A DNA stretch of 64,000 nt from positions 310,001 to 374,000 of the forward strand of contig JANCYW010000012.1 in NCBI GenBank assembly GCA_026184775.1, written 5' to 3'. The stretch's first letter is position 1. Each line of letters opens with the position of its first letter. This document shows positions 4,127-16,739 of this stretch, one piece after another. The notes below the pieces were generated by a model. The model had not been told where the DNA came from. It worked only from the letters and a program-made list of their open reading frames with translations, and did not search any database. The translations under genes were made by a program, and so were the position numbers. Origin of the DNA: Cyanidium caldarium (Eukaryota; Rhodophyta; Bangiophyceae; Cyanidiales; Cyanidiaceae).

Positions 4127-6586
4127 TTAATGATAGTGGGAGAGGGAGGGGCTGGTGGGCGGTGGCGGACTGACACTGGTGGTGCCGCGGGCAGCCAGCG
4201 GGGGCGCGCGCTCGAGGTCGTAATAGTCGATCAGGCCGCATTCCGCCGGCTGCGGCGATGGATGGGGGTCATCGGCGGTGCTGCAGTCGGTGACGGCCAG
4301 CATGCTGTCGGCAGCCGACAGCAGGTCAGTGAGTGGCGGTGGCGGGCTGAGTCGCAAGGAGCCGCTGGGGCGCCAACCGCCGAGTCGCAGCGGAGAGGCG
4401 TCATAGCTGGCGTGACCGCTGGCTGTGTTCAGAGTGCCGACCGGCGCCGAATGCAGCGACGAGCTCATCGCGCTCATCGGCGGCAGACGTTGGCCGAGCT
4501 CGCGCTGTGGTGACGCGTGCGGTGAGCCGCGGAACATGCACCAAGTGCCACCGGGCGAGCAGGCTCCGGGTTGCAGTTCGCGGCCGCGGCGCTGGTGTCG
4601 CGTCAGCGCTAGCACCTCCTCGTCGGCACCGATGTCGTCCGTCGCGAGAGCGGCGCCGTTCATGAGCGCTGTCGCCCCGGGCGGCGGCGTCGCCGTCTGC
4701 GGGCTGCGATACCGACGGGCGTGCGGCGACCCGGACGGCGTGTCCGCTTCGGCGCCCGCCCAACCCCGCAAAGGGCGCGGGCGCGGTTCCGACCGCGCCA
4801 ACCGCGACGGCAGCCGTCCAGCGGTTGCCGATAGTGAGTAAACCGAGCTTCGCCGAGCCGCTGCCGCCAAATACGTCGCCGGCGACAGGGGCGACGGCGA
4901 GCTGACCAGCGCACCGCCGGCCCACTCGTCCGACAGCGACGCGTCTAACAGATGGTGCACTTTCTCCTCATCGTGGTCGTCGTCATCATCGACGTCATCC
5001 GACTCGGCGTCCTCCGCATTGGCGACCTCCACGCCCTCGCGATGCGCTTTGGGCACCGCCGGTGAGGCGTCGGCGACGAGGCGGCGCGGTGGACGCGAGC
5101 GCCGCAACGCCGAGCGTGGTCCGCCCCGAGGCATCGACTCGGATGCCGGCGGTGGTGCGATACCCATTGCGTGCAGCAGATTGGCCGAGTGCGCCACATT
5201 CACCCGCTGGGGTGGCCAGGCGCGCCCCATGTTGCCGTCGGGCCATTGCGTCGGCGAGGACATTGCGGTTTGCCACGGGAAGATCGCCTGCCCGCCAGGC
5301 GGCGTGGAGGTGGCCGCCATCGCCAGCGTGGCTCTATCCGGTGAGGTGTTCAGACCGAGCATTCGCGGCGCCTTCATTCTCGCCCCGCCATCGACCGTGG
5401 CGCTCCAAAGCGGCGCCTGGTCGGCCAGCTCCATCGTCCGTGCCGCCGATCCCGAGCTCACCAGATAACACTCAATCGGGCCGTCGGTCGACTTGAGATA
5501 CATCTGGTAGCGCGCGCCGCCGCCGCCACCGTCGCCTCGCCCGGTGCCGCTCGATGGCGTCTCGGTGGGCACTTCCAGCGTGGTGCCGGCCGGCGCTCGA
5601 ATGGCGATCACCGTCTGATGCTGCAGAAACGGTAACGATAACAAATCCTCGTGCGTCACATACGCGTTCTGCAGCTTCTTGTCGGAGCGCACAAAGCTGC
5701 GCAATCGCTCCTGTAGCGTCTGAATCTCCTGATCCAGCAGGTGGTCCTCGCGCTCCAACCGGTGGATATCCTTCCACAACCTCACGATTTCCCGCTCGAT
5801 CTGGAACTTGCTCTCCCGACTCGTCGGCGTCTCGACATTGGCCGCAGCGGCCGTCGCCGCACCCTCCCCACTAGATGCCCACCGGGCACCGCTACTGCCG
5901 CTGCCGCTGGCCGTCGATGGCCGGCCCGTCGCACGTCGCTCACTCTCCAGCTGAATCGCGTCAATGCCGCGCCACCGAATGTTGTTCTTGCTCTGCTTCT
6001 CAATCACCCCAATGCCCTCCAGCACGTTGGTGATGTCGTAGATGCGCCGCTTCTGCACCGACAGCTGCTCGGCCGCGGCATTCAAGTCCAGCACCCCGTC
6101 GCGGGTGCCGTAGATGAGCTCGATGAACTTGGAGGTCAGCAGGCCGAGCGAGTTTTCTTGCCGCGAGCGGGCGGCACCTCTCGGCGAGCGCTGTGGATGG
6201 CCGTCGTCCACACCGCGCCAGCCACCGTGACTCGACGGGCGCGGCTCGGTGGCCGGCGGCGGCCGGTCCGGGGCATGCGCCGTGAGCGGCACAAACGGCA
6301 CCATGAAGCCGGAAGTGACCGGCGAGGTGACGTACTCCGCATCGTCGATATCGTCGTCCTCGGCGGCGCGTCGCTTCACCGGCGTGGTGCTGGTGGTGCG
6401 ATATCCGTCACGGCGACGGATAACGGTGCGCTGGCGCGTGGCGGCCCAGCCGTCTTGGTCGGTGGGTGGCGTCTCCGGGGTGCCGTCGGCGACGGGCGAC
6501 ACCGACAGCGCATCTGGCTCGGCTGTCGCTGGCGGCCCGAGCGCCGCACGAGCGCCGCTCGGCTTGGCACGCCGTACCCGCGGCAT
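4127..6586 (-). CDS. E2F: E2F-family transcription factor
   Basis: Cell-cycle transcription factor. A canonical E2F winged-helix DNA-binding domain lies at about residues 140-207: [12 protein letters not shown], then [18 protein letters not shown] and NNIRW, with the RRIYD recognition helix intact. It is followed by a leucine-zipper/coiled-coil (about 240-300) and a marked-box region ([21 protein letters not shown], then [18 protein letters not shown]) used for dimerisation with DP. The remaining 450 residues are low complexity, Pro/Ser-rich, with an acidic stretch ([13 protein letters not shown]). A clear C-terminal Rb-binding motif is not seen, although LIDYYDLE near the end is suggestive. 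The first ATG is at 6586; the frame extends to a GTG at 6601. 819 aa. Upstream DNA has E2F-type sites at 6933 and 7437. Confidence 0.93.
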
Positions 6587-7578: not shown

Positions 7579-9147
7579 TTATCGTTCCACAGCGGGTGTG
7601 TTGGCCACGGCACCGCGAAGAGGAGCGAGAGCCCGATAGGCAGACGTTAGGGGCACTTCCAACAGCTGCGCCGGACACGAGACCTGCAGCTGCCACTCGT
7701 TTTCCCGCGTGGAGGTCGGCAGGAGGTGTCGCGAGCGCACCCACTGCGCCACCAACAGCGGGCTCGCAGTTTCCCGTGAGGTGGATGGTGGTAATTGCAG
7801 TCGCAGCGCCAGCCACCGCCGCCGTTGTGGGGGTGTCGACGGAGAGTCGGTGCGTCGCAAACGCTTCACCAGATGCTGTGCCACCGGCGGGGTGGCCGCC
7901 TCGGTGCAGCCCGGCCGGACCATTGCCTGTTGCAACAGCTCGCGCAGCGTGTCCGAGGCGGCATCGATTTCCGCATCCAACCGCCGATGCGCGCGCCGCA
8001 CCTCTTGCAGCGCCGACTCGAGCGCCGCCCGCTCAGCGCGCGCACCGCTCTCGGCACTCAGCAGTTGGGTCGGCGTCAGACTGCGCAGACGCACGCGCAT
8101 GGTGCTGGTTTTGGAACCGTGGGCGGCATGACCGCGCTCCACCACCCCGATCGCCTCGAGCACGCCGATCACATCGTAGATGCGTCGCGGCGGCACGCGC
8201 AACTCGGCCGCGATGGCCGCGCAGGAATCCGGTGGGGCGTCACCGGGCGGTGTGCATGATGACGAGCATGCCTCTGCCGTCGCCAGCCGTGCCAGGAACC
8301 GCGCCGTCAGGTACCCGATACTGCGGTGATACCGCCCGGCGCCCTCCATCGCGGAGGCCGCGAGCGGCGCCGCCCGCGTCCTCCGCTTGCGGATGCGGTC
8401 GCGGCAAGCGCCAGCCACCGTCCCAGCGCGCGACGGATGAAAGTGCTTCAATAAAAACTCGGCATCGGTCATCAGGTCCGCGATGTCCACGCTCGCCTGT
8501 TGCACGTAGGGGTTGGAGGCGGACGCGCGTTCGGTGGTTGGTTGTGGCGGCGGCACTGTGCGCGTCGGTCGCGGCGCTTTCACCCGGTGTGAACGCACTG
8601 CTCGGAGTGCCGGCGTGTTCGGCAGCGAGGGCGACGCCGGCGCCACCGCCTCTCGCCGTATGGGCGACGGCTTGCGGGCACTCGTGTTCCGCCACCCCTC
8701 CATCCACTGCGCCTCGCTCACCGCGTCGCCCTCCGACGGGTGACGCTCTTCGGCTTCCGACCACGATAAGTGCTCCGGCAGCGCCACGTACCGAAACGCG
8801 CTCGGCGACAAGTAGGCCGTCTCCAGCGGTGAGCCCTGCACGCCGTCATCGAGCGCCTCCGCCGACAGCGCCAGCGGCGACCCGTACGGCGGCGGCAGGG
8901 CACCTCCCGGAGACGGGGCGTAATAACGGGCAACCGGAAGTGAACGACTGGCCTGATACAGGGGTGCGCGGCGACGGTACAGAAACGAGGCGTCATCGAC
9001 GGCCGGCTCGATGGGCAGCAGCGGCGCCGCCAGATCCGCCTCGGCGATGCGCACGTTCGACGGAGACGCCCCCACCGCGGCCGCACCCACGCTGCCCGGT
9101 TGACTTTCAGAGCCGCTCATGGCCCACGAGCTGTTGGACGCCTCCAT
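7579..9147 (-). CDS. Divergent E2F-family winged-helix protein
   Basis: The centre carries an E2F-like winged helix: SIGYLTARFLARL, then RRIYDVIGVLEAIGVVER. The first loop is expanded by about 14 Ser/Pro-rich residues and the wing is replaced by Lys/Arg-rich sequence (GSKTSTMRVRLRS). A predicted coiled coil follows (ESALQEVRRAHRRLDAEIDAASDTL) and then a beta-rich region that may be a degenerate marked box. RRIYD rather than RRRVYDALNV points to E2F, not DP. ATGs occur at 9240, 9147 and 9120. I use 9147 because an exact E2F site (9224-9231) lies inside the extra segment and is more likely promoter. 522 aa. It is tandem with E2F and is an old paralogue judging by its divergence. Confidence 0.8.
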   Translation of the reverse strand: MEASNSSWAMSGSESQPGSVGAAAVGASPSNVRIAEADLAAPLLPIEPAVDDASFLYRRRAPLYQASRSLPVARYYAPSPGGALPPPYGSPLALSAEALDDGVQGSPLETAYLSPSAFRYVALPEHLSWSEAEERHPSEGDAVSEAQWMEGWRNTSARKPSPIRREAVAPASPSLPNTPALRAVRSHRVKAPRPTRTVPPPQPTTERASASNPYVQQASVDIADLMTDAEFLLKHFHPSRAGTVAGACRDRIRKRRTRAAPLAASAMEGAGRYHRSIGYLTARFLARLATAEACSSSCTPPGDAPPDSCAAIAAELRVPPRRIYDVIGVLEAIGVVERGHAAHGSKTSTMRVRLRSLTPTQLLSAESGARAERAALESALQEVRRAHRRLDAEIDAASDTLRELLQQAMVRPGCTEAATPPVAQHLVKRLRRTDSPSTPPQRRRWLALRLQLPPSTSRETASPLLVAQWVRSRHLLPTSTRENEWQLQVSCPAQLLEVPLTSAYRALAPLRGAVANTPAVER

Positions 9148-9223
9148 AGTCAGTGCGAGATGTATCGTTCTCTGCCTCGCGGTCAGCAAGCCCAGTGCAG
9201 TGGGAGAGGGCGCGTCAAAAGTG

Positions 9224-9231
9224 GCGCGAAA
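9224..9231. promoter_or_regulatory. E2F-type site GCGCGAAA upstream of the second E2F gene
   Basis: Exact TTTCGCGC on the minus strand, 77 bp upstream of the ATG at 9147, in the context GGCGCGAAAAA. It suggests auto- or cross-regulation of the E2F pair. Confidence 0.5.
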
Positions 9232-9279
9232 AATTCGCATCGCTGTGTCGGACGCAGTCCTTTATTGTCTCATCATGCC

Positions 9280-9628
9280 TCATCTCCCTGCGAAACGCGG
9301 TTCACGGCGTTCGGTAAACGCCCGCAGACCCTCCTGGCGGTCGGCCGATTCGAACGTCTCCGAATAGAAGGCATTCTCCACCTCCAGCGCGTTGGCCATG
9401 GCGCCGGCGTCCATGCCGCAGTCGATGGCCTCCTTGGCCAGACGCAGCGCCATCGGGCTGCGTTTCAGCAGCGCCTCGGCCAGATGCATGGCTTCGGCCA
9501 GCGCCGCATTTTCGGTGCTATCCATCGACGGTACCGCGCGATGCACCAAGCCCATGGAGAGCGCCTCATCGCCGCGCACCTGTTTGCCCAGCAATATCAT
9601 CTCCTTGGCGCGAGCGACGCCAATGAGG

Positions 9629-9663
<35 letters not shown>

Positions 9664-10266
9664 AATACCCAGTCCGGTCTCCGGCAGCGCTAATGTCGCG
9701 TCGGCGGTGGCCACGCGCAAGTCGCACGCCAGGGCCAACTCCAGTCCGCCGCCCATGGCCGCCCCGTTCATTGCGGCGATGGTGACGCAGGGCATCTTGG
9801 CCAGTTGTGCAAACGTGTCGCGCAACCGTGCGGTGCTCTCGCGCTGCGCCTCGGTGCTCTGTTCGGCGCGCTCTTTCAGGTCGGCGCCAGCGCAAAACAC
9901 CCGCGGATGGTTGGAGGCGACGATGAGCACCGCGCAACCAATGGGCTGGGTCGACGCCAGATCCCGAATGGCCGTCAGGTGCTCGCGCAGCTCGTGCACC
10001 AACTGCGTGCCCAGCGCGTTGGCGCGCTCCGGTCGATTCAGGGTCAGCAGCGACAGGCGCGCCTGTGGCTGCGTCCACTGCACTCGGGTGCCACGAGAGA
10101 CCGATTCGGGAGTGGCGGCAGTGTCGGTAGTGAGCGGGCGTGTCGCCGAGAGCAAGGTGCCGCACGGAGTGAGTGTCCTGCCCCGGGTACCCTGCCAGTG
10201 GCTGGCCGGGAGACAAGGCGGTCGCAGCCGGATCCCCGGAGCGCTCCTGCCCGCCCACACGTTCAT
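9280..10266 (-). CDS. AUH: Methylglutaconyl-CoA hydratase (AUH type), mitochondrial
   Basis: Crotonase-family enzyme for the hydration of 3-methylglutaconyl-CoA to HMG-CoA in leucine breakdown. The AUH signature FCAGADLKERA is present, with the oxyanion-hole and catalytic region MGGGLELALACDLRVA, PETGLGILPGAGGTQRLPR and the C-terminal FTERREPRFAG. These features favour AUH over general enoyl-CoA hydratases. The first 55-60 residues are rich in Arg, Ser and Thr and lack acidic residues, as in a mitochondrial presequence. The start is the ATG at 10266. 328 aa. It is the first gene of the leucine block: MCCA lies upstream on the same strand, 286 bp away. It corresponds in function to bacterial LiuC. 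Confidence 0.9.
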
Positions 10267-10360
10267 GACGCTCAGTTAGCGCCACAGTACCCTGAATGAA
10301 CTACGCCTCCTCACCGCGAGACCTCATTGGGGTGAATCGGTGCCCTTGACACCGGCGCGT

Positions 10361-10371
10361 CCCCCCCCCCC
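10361..10371. repeat. Homopolymer C11
   Basis: Run of 11 C between AUH and MCCA. It is outside coding sequence and is a likely spot for length polymorphism or sequencing error. Confidence 0.9.
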
Positions 10372-10552
10372 TGACTCCGATTCTGTGCCACCATCCCCCG
10401 CGCCCTCGAAGCGCGACGACGATCTCTCCCGGCCGCCAGCGACAGCACCGCTGATGCGAGCACACGCATTCCCTCCCGCAGACGCGCATTCTCGCTTTCA
10501 TTTGCGTTTACCAGTCAGTTTGCATCATCCGTTCACACCTAGCGCTCCCCGT

Positions 10553-13051
10553 CTATTCTCGTTGAGATTCGACCTGCTCCTCCTGCAGCACCACCACGTC
10601 GGCACCGGCGGGCACAAAGGCGCCCGGCGTCGCTAGCGTCACTTGCGATACGACGCCCGCGAACGGGGCGCGCATGGTATGCTCCATCTTCATCGCCTCT
10701 ATGGCGGCCACGGCGTCGCCAGCCTTGACGCGCTGACCGACTTGCACGAACAGCTCCAACAGGCGGCCCGGCATCGGACTCTGTATGTGTCCGCGGGGCG
10801 CTCGCGCGGCCGCGGTCTCCGCGGATACAGGCGCACGCTGGTGCATCACGCCCTCGACGGCGGCTTCTTCCGGTCGGCGCTTGGCGGCATAGCGCTGCCA
10901 GAAGAAGGATAGCGGCGAGTGCACCAAAAAGTGGCGCTGGTCCACCCGCACGCGCCACCGCGGCCGGATCTCGGCATCAGCATCAGGCAGATGCGCATCA
11001 GGCTCTACGGTCCAGCTGGTGGGCACTCGACTGGCCACACCGTCCAGCGCCACCCGTCCATCCGCCAGGGCAGTGATCGGGAAGGTGTAGGGTGCAGGTG
11101 GTGACGACGGCGGCGGTGCCTCGTCAACATCCACCGCTTCACAGGCGACCGCCCAAGTCATGGCACTGCCTCGAGCCGTCTCCGCCGCACCCTCAGCGGG
11201 CAGCTCGGCGTCCGTGTTTCGTTCCCGCCGCAGTCGAACGCGCCAGAAGGTCCCTCCCGCGCTCCTCCCCTCCCGTAGCGTATCCGCCGACGGTCTCTCT
11301 ACCTCCGAATAGAACGCAGTATACTCGCCGTGCCCGTCGTTGGCGAATCCGGTCAGCGCTCCGTGTCGCTCGGTCAACTGCTGCAGTACTCGCCACGCCG
11401 CGATACCGGCGTCTTGCTCCTGACGGCGGGTCGCAGCACCGACCGCAAGCGGTTCGCGCCTCTCCGCCTCTTGCCGCAAACGCTCTAGAATGCGCGGTAT
11501 ACGCTGCTCCAACCAGGTGGTGCACACGCCCTCGCGCTGACCCGGCATGCCGTGCCGAAACTCTTCATCCCGCAACACCGCCCGCACAAAGGCCGCATTG
11601 GTGGCGATGCCGCCTACCCGCATCCGCGACAGCGTCTCATCGAGGCGCTCGATGGCCGCCGCCCGCCCGCCCGCCCGCACAATCACTTTGGCGATCATGG
11701 GGTCGTAGTCGAGCGACACCTGATCACGTACCCGTACGCCCACATCCACCCGCACGTCCTCGTTTAACCAGACGCGTTCGGGCGGCTCCCCGCCCACCAG
11801 AAAGGTGTGAATGCGCCCGCTTTGCGGCAGGAACTGGCCCTGCGCGTCCACCGCCTCCGCGTAGATGCGCGCCTCGATGGCATGCGCCTGGACACCGGGC
11901 GCCACCGAGCGCAGCACCACATCCTCCTGACGGCGCACCGGCAGCGGTTCCCCGGCGGCTACCCGCAACTGCCACTCCACCAGATCCACATCGTGCAGAC
12001 AGTGCTCTTCATGGGGGGCTACCGGCGCTCGCATCGCCACCGACATCTCGGTCACCGGGTGCTCCACTTGGAGGCGCGTGTTCATCTCCATAAACCAAAA
12101 CTCGTCGTGCTCTGCATCCAACAGAAACTCCACCGTGCCCGCGCCGGTGTACTGGACGGCCTCCGCGGCCTGCACCGCAGCGCGACCCATGCGCTGCCGC
12201 AGTGACTCGGTCAGCGCCGGCCCCGGCGCCTCTTCGATGATCTTCTGATGGCGTCGTTGCACCGAGCAATCGCGCTCGTACAAATGCACCACTCGATACC
12301 GCTCTCCCTCATCGCCGCCGCCGCCGCCGCCACCGCCGCCGAACACTTGAAACTCCACATGTCGCGCCTGCTCCACGTAGCGCTCCAACAACATGGCATC
12401 GTCGCCAAAGGCGTACTTGGCTTCGCGGCGCGCCGACGCCAGCGCTGCGGCAAACTCGTCCTCTCTGCGCACGATGCGCATACCCTTGCCGCCGCCGCCA
12501 TACACCGGTTTGATGATCAGCGGGAAGCCGACCTGCCGCTGCGCCGCCTGCTGCAGCTCGCGCTCCGAGTCGCCGGGGCGCGCGTGATACCCCGGCACCA
12601 CCGGCACGCCGGCCGACTGCATGGTCTCCCGGGCGCGCGCTTTCTCGCCCATAATTTCCATGGCCTGCGGCGACGGCCCGCACCAGCGCAAATTCACCTC
12701 CTGCAGCGCCGCCGCAAACTCGGCGCGCTCCGACAGAAACCCCCACCCGGGATGCACCGCCACCCGTGCGTCGGCCTCGGCCTTGCCCAACGCACCCGCC
12801 AACCGCCGCCGAAAGCGCTGCGCCGCCTCACACACCCCGGCCACGTTCAGGTACGGCAGCGACGGGCTCGGCGGCAGCGCCACCGCATAGTGCGCCGCAT
12901 CGGTGGCCAGCGTGCCACCTCGCAGCTCCGCCTCGGTGCACGCCACCGCCGTCCACAGCCCGAGCTGCTTGGCGGTGCGTATCACCCGCAGTGCCGGATC
13001 GCCCCGGTTGGCCACAAACACCGCGTCCAGCGCTATTTTGGCCGCCCTCAT
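10553..13051 (-). CDS. MCCA: Methylcrotonoyl-CoA carboxylase alpha (biotin) subunit, mitochondrial
   Basis: Carries the biotin-carboxylase and biotin-carrier parts of the enzyme that carboxylates 3-methylcrotonyl-CoA in leucine breakdown. Visible are the FVANRG start of the BC domain, the ATP-grasp loop YGGGGKGM, ERDCSVQRRHQKIIEEAPGP, EMNTRLQVEHPVTEM, and a C-terminal biotin site EAMKMEHT (Lys at about 788). MCCB next door supports the MCC rather than PCC assignment. Two insertions are odd: a Gly run after QVFG, and about 15 residues between EHPVTEM and DLVEWQ. The first in-frame ATG (13051) gives 832 aa with no presequence. The frame stays open, basic and free of acidic residues up to a TGA near 13243, but without an ATG, so the true 5' end is uncertain (see findings). 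Confidence 0.92.
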   Translation of the reverse strand: MRAAKIALDAVFVANRGDPALRVIRTAKQLGLWTAVACTEAELRGGTLATDAAHYAVALPPSPSLPYLNVAGVCEAAQRFRRRLAGALGKAEADARVAVHPGWGFLSERAEFAAALQEVNLRWCGPSPQAMEIMGEKARARETMQSAGVPVVPGYHARPGDSERELQQAAQRQVGFPLIIKPVYGGGGKGMRIVRREDEFAAALASARREAKYAFGDDAMLLERYVEQARHVEFQVFGGGGGGGGGDEGERYRVVHLYERDCSVQRRHQKIIEEAPGPALTESLRQRMGRAAVQAAEAVQYTGAGTVEFLLDAEHDEFWFMEMNTRLQVEHPVTEMSVAMRAPVAPHEEHCLHDVDLVEWQLRVAAGEPLPVRRQEDVVLRSVAPGVQAHAIEARIYAEAVDAQGQFLPQSGRIHTFLVGGEPPERVWLNEDVRVDVGVRVRDQVSLDYDPMIAKVIVRAGGRAAAIERLDETLSRMRVGGIATNAAFVRAVLRDEEFRHGMPGQREGVCTTWLEQRIPRILERLRQEAERREPLAVGAATRRQEQDAGIAAWRVLQQLTERHGALTGFANDGHGEYTAFYSEVERPSADTLREGRSAGGTFWRVRLRRERNTDAELPAEGAAETARGSAMTWAVACEAVDVDEAPPPSSPPAPYTFPITALADGRVALDGVASRVPTSWTVEPDAHLPDADAEIRPRWRVRVDQRHFLVHSPLSFFWQRYAAKRRPEEAAVEGVMHQRAPVSAETAAARAPRGHIQSPMPGRLLELFVQVGQRVKAGDAVAAIEAMKMEHTMRAPFAGVVSQVTLATPGAFVPAGADVVVLQEEQVESQRE

Positions 13052-13450
13052 CCTCGTCCACGACCACCACCAGCGCAAACGTCGGCGTGCATGCGCATGT
13101 CCGGCGGGAGAGGCAACGCGACACGGCGCGCGACGGGTCGGGAGGCCGAGGCAACGGGTGCAGAGGCGCACGAGGCAGGGGGCACATACAAGATGGCGAT
13201 GAGGGCAGAGAAAGAGACAGGCAGGGGTGCGTGAGAGAGATCACGGGGACAGGTTCGTGTTTGGAACGAGGTGTCTTGTAGTGGACTGTTGCACTGGGAG
13301 GTAAACACGCTCTGCCCAACGGTCTCCACCTGTCTCTCTGTCTCTCTTCTGGACCACCACGTTTCGACCGGCCTGGTGCGTCTGTCTCGGAGGTTGTCCG
13401 GTGGGGACTCTCTCACGCTTGCAGTCGGTCGTTGTAGGCACTCGCTTCCC
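13052..13450. promoter_or_regulatory. Shared divergent region between MCCA and IVD
   Basis: 399 bp separate the first in-frame ATG of MCCA (13051, minus) from the ATG of IVD (13451, plus). The two head-to-head genes act in consecutive steps of leucine catabolism, so this is a candidate bidirectional promoter. Part of it is probably the MCCA 5' coding end. I see no clear TATA box or E2F site. Confidence 0.5.
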
Positions 13451-14920
13451 ATGTGGCGACCGCTTCTTCACCTCGCTCGTCGCGCGCCATCTGCCCACTC
13501 GCTCAACCACTACCTCGTGCACACGCGTCTGCCTCGCTCGTCCCTGGCACTCCGTCGACGAGTCCACTCCGAACCGCTCGCGGAGACATCCGCCTGGTGG
13601 GGCGCACCGGGCACGGTCTACTACGACGGCGCCAGCACGCACGCCGATTCGATACTCACGCACGAGCACGGCGCTCTGGATGAGACGCGCCGGGCGTTGC
13701 GGGATGCGGTGCGGCGGTTTGCGCACGACCACGTCGCGCCGTACGCGGCGCTCATCGACGCCAGCAACCGCTTCCCCCGCGAGCAGCTGTGGCCGCGCCT
13801 CGGTGAGCTCGGGGCGCTCGGCGTGACTGCGTCGCCGGAACACGGCGGGCTCGGGCTCGGCTACACCGAACACTGTCTGGTGATGGAGGAGCTGAGTCGC
13901 GCTTCGGCCAGCGTGGGTCTGTCGTACGGTGCGCACTCCAATTTATGCGTGCAGCAGATCGAGCGACACGGCACCGCCGAGCAGAAACAGGCGGTGCTGC
14001 CGCGGCTGTGCCGTGGCGAGTGGGTGGGCGCGCTGGCCATGAGCGAGACCGGCGCCGGCTCCGATGTGCTCGGTAGTATGCGCACGGTGGCGCGACGGGA
14101 GCGTGTGGCCAGCGCCACCGCCTCAGCGGTTTCCGAACGGTGGGTGCTGAACGGCGGAAAGATGTGGATCACCAACGGGCCGGACGCCGATGCGCTGGTG
14201 GTGTATGCGCGCACTCCGGAACTGGACATGGCCGACAAACCCGCCTTCACCGCGTTTCTGGTGTGTCCGCGCGCGTTGGACGGCGCCGACGCCGGTCGCA
14301 GCGGATACCGCGTCGCCCAGAAACTGCACAAGCTGGGCATGCGCGGCAGCAACACTTGCGAGCTGCTGTTCGAGGACGTGCGGCTGCCGGCGTCGGCGGT
14401 GCTGGGCGAGCCGGGCCGCGGCGCACACGTGCTCATGTCGGGGCTGGATTCGGAGCGGCTGGTGCTGAGCGCTGGCCCACTCGGCATCATGCAGGCGTGT
14501 CTGGATGTGGTGTTGCCGTACGTGGCGCAGCGGCAGCAGTTCGGGCGGCCTATCGGCGAACTGCCGCTGATGCAGGCCAAGCTGGCCGATATGTACGCTA
14601 CGCTGAGCAGCTCGCGCGCTCACACCTACACCGTGGCGCTGGCGCTGGACACGGCCATGCGGGAGAGCGGTGCATCCGGTGCCGCGCGCCTGCGCACTTA
14701 CCGCCGCGACTGCGCGGCGGTCATCCTGCAGAACGCCGAGCGGGCCACTCAGGTCGCCCTGCAGGCCATCCAAGCGCTCGGCGGCAACGGGTACGTCGAC
14801 GAGTATCCCGCCGGGCGGCTGCTCCGCGATGCCAAACTGTACGAGATCGGCGCGGGCACCAGCGAAGTGCGGCGCATCCTCATCGGCCGCGAGCTGTACG
14901 AGACCGTGCGAAGCTCGTGA
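13451..14920 (+). CDS. IVD: Isovaleryl-CoA dehydrogenase, mitochondrial
   Basis: Acyl-CoA dehydrogenase that oxidises isovaleryl-CoA to 3-methylcrotonyl-CoA and passes electrons to ETF. IVD-specific blocks are strong: GLSYGAHSNLCVQQIERHG, GALAMSETGAGSDV, WITNGPDADALVVYA, KLGMRGSNTCELLFEDV and YEIGAGTSEVRRILIGRELY. The catalytic Glu expected for IVD lies in MSGLDSERLVL at about residue 335. The ATG at 13451 gives 489 aa with a basic presequence (MWRPLLHLARRAPS) typical of mitochondria. The frame is open upstream to 13271, but that part looks untranslated. It corresponds to bacterial LiuA. Its 3' end is 46 bp from that of MCCB. Confidence 0.95.
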   Translation: MWRPLLHLARRAPSAHSLNHYLVHTRLPRSSLALRRRVHSEPLAETSAWWGAPGTVYYDGASTHADSILTHEHGALDETRRALRDAVRRFAHDHVAPYAALIDASNRFPREQLWPRLGELGALGVTASPEHGGLGLGYTEHCLVMEELSRASASVGLSYGAHSNLCVQQIERHGTAEQKQAVLPRLCRGEWVGALAMSETGAGSDVLGSMRTVARRERVASATASAVSERWVLNGGKMWITNGPDADALVVYARTPELDMADKPAFTAFLVCPRALDGADAGRSGYRVAQKLHKLGMRGSNTCELLFEDVRLPASAVLGEPGRGAHVLMSGLDSERLVLSAGPLGIMQACLDVVLPYVAQRQQFGRPIGELPLMQAKLADMYATLSSSRAHTYTVALALDTAMRESGASGAARLRTYRRDCAAVILQNAERATQVALQAIQALGGNGYVDEYPAGRLLRDAKLYEIGAGTSEVRRILIGRELYETVRSS

Positions 14921-14966
14921 ATGGAGGAGGAGACGAAACGGTGCATACCATAACCGACGGTGCATC

Positions 14967-15390
14967 TCACATCCGGAACACGCCATACCGTCCCGAGAGC
15001 GCCTCCTCCGCATCCTCTCGCCGTCGTCCTCTTCGCTCTCCCTCGTTCGCCACGCAGACCGACAGCGCCACCCCGAGCACGTCGCGCAACTCCTCCGGCA
15101 ACACCACCCCGTCATCCCACAAATGCGCGCTGGAGAACCAGGCGCTGCTCTCGCGCTCGTACTGCTGCACCATATCCACCGGACGGCCGCGCTCCGCCGC
15201 CGCCGCCGCCTGCACCTGACGCAACACCTGCGCCGCCTGCTCCCCGCCCATCACCCCGATGCGCGCGCTGGGCAGCATGAACAGAAAACGCGGCGCATAC
15301 GCCCGCCCGCACATGCCGTAATTGCCGGCGCCGTAACTGCCGCCGACGACCACGCTCAGTTTGGGCACCGTGGCGCACGCCACCGCGTTC

Positions 15391-15421
<31 letters not shown>

Positions 15422-16739
15422 CCCACTCGGCCTGTCTGCCTACCATGAAACCGACCACGTTGTGCAGGAAGAGCAGCGGCACGTGCCGCTGTTCACACAG
15501 CTGGATAAAGTGGGCGCCCTTCTTGGCCGACTCGCCGAACAACACGCCCTGGTTGGCCACGATGCCCACTGCGTGGCCGTGAAGGTGCGCCCACCCGGTC
15601 ACCAGCGTGCTGCCGTAGCGCGGTTTGAACTCGTCCAGCTGCGAGTCGTCCACCAGCCGCGCCACCACCTGATACATGTCGATGGGGGCAGTGCTGGTGC
15701 TGGAGGCGGATTCGGTCGCGGCCGCCGGCAATATACCGCGCAATTCCCACGGGTCATACCGCGGTGCCGGGTGCGACTCGGTGGCGCCCGTCGCTGCGGA
15801 TAGACCCTCGGTCCTGTCTCCATCCAAATCCCTCACCATGCGGCGCACCAGCGCCAGCGCTTCGGCGTCGTCGTTGGCAAAATGGTCCGCCACGCCGCTC
15901 TTCCCAGTGTGCACTTCGGCGCCGCCCAGTTCGTCGGCGGTGACCGTCTCACCGATGGCCGCCTTCACCAGCGGCGGGCCGCCCAGAAAGATCGACCCGG
16001 TGCCCTGCACGATGGCGGTCTCGTCGGCCATGGCGGGCACGTACGCGCCACCGGCCGTGCAGCTGCCCATCACCGCCGCCAGCTGCGCGATACCGTCGCG
16101 GCTCATGCGCGCCTGGTTGTAGAAAATGCGCCCGAAATGCTCCCGATCCGGGAACACTCGGTGCTGCAGCGGCAGGTACGCGCCGCCCGAGTCCACCAAA
16201 TACACACACGGCAGGCGGCAGGCGGAGGCGATCTCTTGCGCCCGCAGATGCTTCTTGACGGTCATGGGAAAGTAGGTGCCACCTTTGACGGTGGCGTCGT
16301 TGGCCACCACCATGCACCAGCGGCCGGCGATGCGCCCGACGCCGGCCACCAACGATGCCCCCGGCGGCAGGGCCTGCTCGCTAGCATCGTCGTCGGTGGC
16401 GATCATGTATTCGCCGGCGCCGGCCAGCGCAGCCACCTCGAGAAACGGCGAGCCCGGGTCCAGCAGCGCGGCGACGCGCTCGCGCGCCGATAGTTTGCCG
16501 CGGGACCGGTGGCGGGCGATAGCCTCAGCGCGTCCATCGCCTCCAGCTTTTCCGAGTAGACGACGGAGGTGATCCGCCAGTCGAGCGTACGCTTGTTGGT
16601 TGTGCTGGTATTCAGGTGCGTGGCGGTCCACCGCCGTGCCCACCGACGCGTACCGCAGGGGAGAGCGAGGGCGGGGCAGAGGAGAGGCGCGGCGAATCTG
16701 CAGAGGCGCGCCGAGGCGCAGAAGCCTCAGCGCCCTCAT
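14967..16739 (-). CDS. MCCB: Methylcrotonoyl-CoA carboxylase beta subunit, mitochondrial
   Basis: Carboxyltransferase subunit that moves CO2 from biotin to 3-methylcrotonyl-CoA. Typical MCCB motifs are [89 protein letters not shown] and, in the second half, [21 protein letters not shown] and GGEQAAQVL. The first ATG at 16739 yields 590 aa with an Arg/Leu-rich presequence ([12 protein letters not shown]) for mitochondrial import. A GTG two codons upstream is ignored. It corresponds to bacterial LiuB. Converges on IVD with a 46-bp gap, so the 3' UTRs probably overlap. Confidence 0.95.

What the first reader, a model, noticed from the sequence alone, without database searches (positions are those of the whole stretch)
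9280..16739. Eukaryotic leucine-degradation gene cluster (AUH, MCCA, IVD, MCCB)
Four adjacent genes with no other gene between them encode three consecutive mitochondrial steps from isovaleryl-CoA to HMG-CoA. They correspond to bacterial liuA, B, C and D; liuE (HMG-CoA lyase) is not in the window. An ivd-mccA-mccB cluster is known in Aspergillus, but in plants these genes are generally dispersed, and I know of no description from red algae. All four have or probably have mitochondrial presequences and eukaryotic-style motifs, so this looks like an assembled nuclear metabolic cluster rather than a fresh bacterial operon. Orientation is mixed (minus, minus, plus, minus), so it is not one transcript.
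Basis: partly seen in the sequence, partly recalled or inferred. Interest (0 to 1): 0.85.

Follow-up and report, generated by a model that had tools for sequence, protein, structure and literature searches.

The report
Leucine-breakdown gene cluster in red alga
Four neighbouring genes in the tiny nuclear genome of a hot-spring red alga encode the three enzymes that carry leucine breakdown from isovaleryl-CoA to HMG-CoA, a kind of gene grouping known from Aspergillus fungi, here found in an unrelated photosynthetic lineage.

Summary
Within 7.46 kb lie AUH (-), MCCA (-), IVD (+) and MCCB (-), each one open frame, with no other gene seen between them. The host matches Cyanidium caldarium 063 E5, a telomere-to-telomere assembly, so misassembly is unlikely. 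Other branched-chain genes of the genome are scattered: BCKDH E1-alpha C19, HMG-CoA lyase C18, propionyl-CoA carboxylase C16 and C7, another acyl-CoA dehydrogenase C3. Four given genes adjoin by chance at about 2e-10. In another cyanidiophyte, MCCA relative P0122 and MCCB relative P0002 report the same longest contig, 20,764 bases, which suggests, without proving, linkage kept for 0.3-0.5 billion years. Codon use is native. For each gene the cyanidiophyte rows form one clade, but eukaryotic or old bacterial origin is unresolved. One claim fails: MCCA shows no N-terminal presequence, here or in relatives. Weakest point: AUH is tied with another enoyl-CoA hydratase. The closest known system is the Aspergillus ivdA-mccA-mccB cluster. 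A new member of a known kind, with AUH added.

The parts
9280..10266 (-). AUH: probable 3-methylglutaconyl-CoA hydratase, 328 aa; first 45 residues have 6 Arg/Lys and no Asp/Glu
   Evidence: ECH_1 E 1.3e-62; human AUH 4.6e-55; clade with P0242-P0244, SH-aLRT 100; N-terminus
10553..13051 (-). MCCA: 3-methylcrotonyl-CoA carboxylase alpha (biotin carboxylase + biotinyl domain, EAMKMEH), 832 aa, no presequence, poorly conserved middle region
   Evidence: clade with P0122-P0124, SH-aLRT 100
13052..13450 (.). 399-bp divergent intergenic region, the presumed two-way promoter of MCCA and IVD; no in-frame upstream ATG for MCCA
13451..14920 (+). IVD: isovaleryl-CoA dehydrogenase, 489 aa, Arg-rich presequence-like N-terminus, motifs GLDSERLVL and YEIGAGTSE
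14967..16739 (-). MCCB: 3-methylcrotonyl-CoA carboxylase beta, 590 aa, Arg-rich presequence-like N-terminus; convergent with IVD, 46 bp apart

Best explanation
This is a real eukaryotic metabolic gene cluster: the leucine-specific middle of the pathway (IVD, both MCC subunits, AUH), nuclear-encoded in Cyanidium caldarium. Shown by sequence: the enzymes (AUH less firmly), their order, and the scattering of the other branched-chain genes looked for. Inferred: they act in mitochondria, turning isovaleryl-CoA into HMG-CoA, which the unlinked HMG-CoA lyase splits into acetyl-CoA and acetoacetate, so that leucine from protein turnover can be burned in the dark or under starvation. Inferred: the genes stay together because co-inheritance and shared chromatin or the shared MCCA/IVD promoter help balanced expression and avoid build-up of toxic acyl-CoAs. 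The MCCA-MCCB link probably predates the split of Cyanidium from Cyanidioschyzon-type algae.
For: Enzyme identity by Pfam, PDB sequence matches and motifs. Four-gene contiguity, chance about 2e-10 for four given genes (gene number 4,870 from PMC13353863). The other branched-chain genes found lie elsewhere: BCKDH E1-alpha C19, HMG-CoA lyase C18, propionyl-CoA carboxylase beta C7 and alpha C16, another acyl-CoA dehydrogenase C3; by my own reading of the sequences, HIBCH-like C20 and ECHS1-like C4. Native codon use and GC3. Presequence-like N-termini on three of four. MCCA P0122 and MCCB P0002 share longest-contig length 20,764 and sources. HMG-CoA reductase was not found in the genome, which leaves the lyase for HMG-CoA.
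Against: No expression data. No 8-mer is shared by the three promoter regions, against a mean of 1.09 in 300 random window triples, so no common regulatory site is seen. MCCA lacks a presequence, which leaves its mitochondrial place unshown. AUH is tied with a non-AUH crotonase and no NCBIfam cut-off is reached for it. The AUH relative of Cyanidiococcus lies on a 540,805-base contig (CCYA12G3261) and no listed AUH or IVD row carries the 20,764 length, so linkage of all four elsewhere is unshown. No CoA-transferase family match (SCOT) was found, so use of acetoacetate is unclear.
Confidence: 0.8

Rival explanations
1. The cluster came in as one block from a bacterial liu-type operon in an ancestor of these algae and was later rearranged and fitted with presequences.
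For: Bacterial MCCB genes can sit beside MCCA or IVD (13 and 14 of 80 loci).
Against: No bacterial donor clade appears for any of the four in these trees. Holding cyanidiophytes with other eukaryotes is not rejected for MCCB (p 0.326) or IVD (p 0.281), nor cyanidiophyte AUH with Galdieria AUH (p 0.152). Strands are mixed, codon use is native. The main text of the eLife HGT survey has no 'isovaleryl', 'methylcrotonyl', 'acyl-CoA dehydrogenase' or 'enoyl-CoA hydratase' (term search; supplements not read).
Confidence: 0.15
2. The neighbourhood is an accident of genome shrinkage: dispersed genes fell together and linkage has no functional meaning.
For: The genome is extremely compact (mean intergenic 319.7 bp, PMC9812998 passage). 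Gaps here are ordinary for the window (median 183 bp among 33 ORFs), strands are mixed, and no shared promoter word is seen.
Against: Compactness does not raise the chance that four genes of one pathway are neighbours (about 2e-10 for four given genes). MCCA-MCCB linkage seems kept in another lineage.
Confidence: 0.08
3. One or more of the four work in another pathway (for example AUH as a general enoyl-CoA hydratase), so the set is not a leucine cluster.
For: The AUH match is the weakest: human AUH 190.6 bits and entry 3kqf, an enoyl-CoA hydratase/isomerase family protein, 195.1 bits are tied, and no NCBIfam cut-off is reached.
Against: Other enoyl-CoA hydratase-type genes exist elsewhere in the genome (four more family matches); several relatives carry the JGI name methylglutaconyl-CoA hydratase; the neighbours are pathway partners.
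Confidence: 0.05

Closest known systems
Aspergillus leucine-catabolic cluster (A. nidulans mccB AN4687, ivdA AN4688, mccA AN4690; A. terreus MCC ATEG_06573 and 06576, IVD ATEG_06574)
   Same: Eukaryotic, nuclear, IVD and both MCC subunits close together, with the IVD locus number between the two MCC numbers (passages of PMC4117967, and PMC7842363)
   Different: Here AUH is adjacent too, no gene lies between the three (one or two locus numbers are skipped in Aspergillus), and the host is a photosynthetic red alga. No named hit among the 120 listed for MCCA or for MCCB is fungal
Bacterial liu operon (liuABCDE; names recalled)
   Same: Same enzymes next to each other
   Different: In the 23 of 80 bacterial loci here with a second pathway gene, all lie on one strand; here strands are mixed, the lyase is on another chromosome, and three proteins have presequence-like N-termini
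Dispersed leucine-degradation genes of plants and animals (recalled)
   Same: Same mitochondrial enzymes
   Different: Genes unlinked there, adjacent here

Membership tests
3-methylcrotonyl-CoA carboxylase (alpha and beta) | Beta subunit closer to MCC than to PCC/GCC | tested here: met
   566-614 bits to the eight best rows (five named MCC beta; AccD1 and 9tps bear PCC-type names), 404 to geranyl-CoA carboxylase, 226 or less to other PCC beta rows; the genome's own PCC beta scores 632 to PCC
3-methylcrotonyl-CoA carboxylase (alpha and beta) | Alpha subunit with biotin carboxylase and biotinyl Lys motif | tested here: met
3-methylcrotonyl-CoA carboxylase (alpha and beta) | BT domain of alpha that docks on beta (role recalled) | tested here: inconclusive
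   PF21139 is not listed for P0121-P0124 nor for the window MCCA, but it is also missing from other rows such as P0155, P0227 and P0229; most of residues 533-750 has pLDDT under 50
Isovaleryl-CoA dehydrogenase | IVD-type catalytic motif (Glu in GLDxERLVL, YEIGAGTSE; role recalled) | tested here: met
3-methylglutaconyl-CoA hydratase (AUH) | Closer to AUH than to other crotonases | tested here: inconclusive
   191 bits to AUH, 131-153 to rows named mitochondrial ECH, but 195 to 3kqf and 183 to 5jbw
Eukaryotic metabolic gene cluster | Adjacent non-homologous genes of one pathway | tested here: met
Eukaryotic metabolic gene cluster | Co-expression | not testable with these tools
   No expression data
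Eukaryotic metabolic gene cluster | Linkage conserved in relatives | tested here: inconclusive
Bacterial liu operon | Co-directional genes on one transcript | tested here: not met
   IVD lies on the opposite strand

The most novel reading that the evidence does not exclude
The cluster is an ancient, selected feature of Cyanidiales and Cyanidioschyzonales, and its MCC alpha subunit has permanently lost its cleavable presequence, reaching mitochondria by an internal signal or carried in by MCCB, with linkage helping the balanced synthesis that such joint import would need.
Probability: 0.1. Interest if true: 0.7.

Novelty: new member of a known kind. Interest (0 to 1): 0.45.

Why it matters
A cluster for leucine breakdown is known from Aspergillus, but none in red algae turned up in my ten paper searches (open-licence papers only). 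A second case in a genome of 4,870 predicted genes, in a group with haploid clones and transformation methods (PMC13353863 passages), would let one test whether linkage, shared promoters or avoidance of toxic intermediates keeps such clusters. That leucine breakdown is kept in one of the smallest free-living eukaryote genomes also suggests that it matters to a photosynthetic cell (its trophic mode is recalled, not checked).

Tried and rejected
Recent bacterial transfer or contamination: rejected by native GC and codon use in a 20-contig nuclear genome. Hidden genes between the four: no tRNA or Rfam family in the window, gaps of 46-399 bp. Hidden presequence exon for MCCA: no in-frame ATG in the 399 bp upstream, two 5'-splice-like words, no branch-like word by patterns I recalled for Cyanidioschyzon introns; an out-of-frame ATG at 13187 opens an Arg-rich frame (seen in the letters), so a non-consensus intron is not excluded. 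Shared promoter word: none of 8 bases or more. Gene trees for a single donor: placement unresolved; MCCA is useless for this because of its stem of 1.52 and joined long branches. MCCA fold: the central region is too uncertain to say whether it is a BT domain, and few rows span it. Linkage of IVD or AUH in relatives: the joined query gave none; only 120 of 7,999 scored rows are listed and the IVD part was 144 residues, so absence is not shown. Genome searches are six-frame; each gene was sought with one Pfam family. The magnaporthe IVD paper (PMC6426774, term search) has no word beginning with 'cluster'.
Full report
What is there. The window lies at 310,001-374,000 of contig C12 in a genome of 8,787,356 bases and 20 contigs. 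Its size, contig number and 63-69% GC match Cyanidium caldarium 063 E5 as tabulated in PMC13353863: 8.79 Mb, 65.7% GC, 20 of 20 telomere-to-telomere contigs, 4,870 genes, 44 introns (passages). The naming of the organism is therefore an inference. Four uninterrupted ORFs fill 9280-16739: AUH (328 aa, minus), MCCA (832 aa, minus), IVD (489 aa, plus), MCCB (590 aa, minus), with gaps of 286, 399 and 46 bp. No tRNA and no Rfam family was found in the window.

Is the grouping more than chance? Four given genes being neighbours among 4,870 has a probability near 2e-10; even a thousand pathways of that size would leave it below one in a million. The same genome gives an internal contrast. HMG-CoA lyase is on C18, BCKDH E1-alpha on C19, propionyl-CoA carboxylase beta on C7 (632 bits to PCC beta) and alpha on C16 (542 bits to human PCC alpha, 432 to human MCC alpha), another acyl-CoA dehydrogenase on C3. 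By my reading of the sequences, an ECHS1-like gene is on C4 and a HIBCH-like one on C20. So, among the genes looked for, only the leucine-specific steps between isovaleryl-CoA and HMG-CoA are clustered, and HMG-CoA lyase is left out.

Is it conserved? In the searches of 5.8 billion proteins the best MCCA relatives are P0121 (95%, contig 140,150), P0122 (44%, contig 20,764), P0123 and P0124, the last named as Cyanidioschyzon merolae 10D. The best MCCB relatives are P0002 (61%, contig 20,764), P0003 and P0004. I did not see that contig. The joined AUH/IVD query found AUH relatives P0242-P0244, P0243 being CCYA12G3261 of Cyanidiococcus on a 540,805-base contig, and IVD relatives P0303 and P0310, none with length 20,764. 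The split of Cyanidium from Cyanidioschyzon-type algae is put at about 0.3 billion years (PMC13353863, passage) or c. 500 million years (PMC13062707, passage).

Where did the genes come from? For each gene the cyanidiophyte rows form one clade: MCCB 99 and 98, MCCA 100, AUH 100 (SH-aLRT of quick trees) and IVD 100/100. Their deep placement is not settled. In the free trees they do not join the other eukaryotes. Holding them together with other eukaryotes is not rejected for MCCB (p 0.326) or IVD (p 0.281), nor is cyanidiophyte AUH with Galdieria phlegrea AUH (p 0.152). MCCA has a stem of 1.52 changes per column and cannot be placed. Eukaryote sampling was thin: 2 to 6 rows per tree. Codon use and GC3 (0.79-0.84) are like those of the neighbours. 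Among 80 bacterial loci fetched with MCCB, 23 held MCCA and/or IVD above my score limits, always on the MCCB strand; HMG-CoA lyase passed in 1 and AUH in 0 (many loci are cut by contig ends). The algal locus has IVD on the other strand. A fresh operon transfer is therefore out, an ancient one is not.

How it would work. MCCA and IVD diverge from a 399-bp gap that probably holds a two-way promoter; IVD and MCCB converge 46 bp apart; AUH follows MCCA after 286 bp. So at least three transcripts are needed. No word of 8 bases is common to the three promoter regions, while 300 random window triples share 1.09 on average. Presequence-like N-termini are seen on AUH, IVD and MCCB (no predictor was run), which points to mitochondria. 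HMG-CoA reductase was not found and HMG-CoA synthase was, no CoA-transferase family match was found, and three thiolase-like frames were. HMG-CoA from leucine thus most likely goes to the lyase; what becomes of acetoacetate is open. These genome searches are six-frame and blind to introns, which matters little with 44 introns.

The odd MCCA. The window protein, P0121, P0123 and P0124 start within a few residues of the shared IALDAVF(V/I)ANRGD, straight at the biotin carboxylase domain; P0122 has a longer start that does not align. In the window the frame has no earlier ATG back to a stop at 13241, and no consensus intron stands out. Its middle region, where other MCC alphas carry the BT domain, is not recognised by Pfam in these rows, though the same is true of some plant, green-algal and bacterial rows, and it is modelled with pLDDT mostly under 50. 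How MCCA enters mitochondria is the most interesting loose end.

Comparison. Aspergillus nidulans has mccB (AN4687), ivdA (AN4688) and mccA (AN4690) clustered, and A. terreus has MCC ATEG_06573 and 06576 around IVD ATEG_06574 (passages in PMC4117967, and PMC7842363). The algal cluster has the same inner order, IVD between the two MCC genes, which by chance happens one time in three, plus AUH. No paper on such a cluster in red algae turned up in searches; only open-licence papers are held, I saw listings and term passages, and supplements were not read. I file it as a new member of a known kind, eukaryotic catabolic gene clusters.

Noticed in passing
window 4127-6586 and 7579-9240 (both -): Two E2F-family genes side by side next to the cluster; the nearer one, with a weak E2F_TDP match (2.5e-8), starts 39 bp beyond the AUH stop codon.
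   Followed up: partly
L089 and L109 (G000 C17, frames of 1,193 aa): Enoyl-CoA hydratase and thiolase C-terminal matches about 3 kb apart lie in frames of the same length, suggesting one trifunctional beta-oxidation fusion protein.
   Followed up: no
L107 (G000 C7:261343-262395): HMG-CoA synthase is present while HMG-CoA reductase and a CoA-transferase were not found, so its role is unclear.
   Followed up: no
window 10553-13051: MCC alpha lacks a presequence and has a very long stem branch in cyanidiophytes.
   Followed up: partly
P0003 and P0310: MCCB row P0003 and IVD row P0310 branch just outside the other cyanidiophyte rows and come from unnamed sources; perhaps an unsampled lineage of the class.
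   Followed up: no
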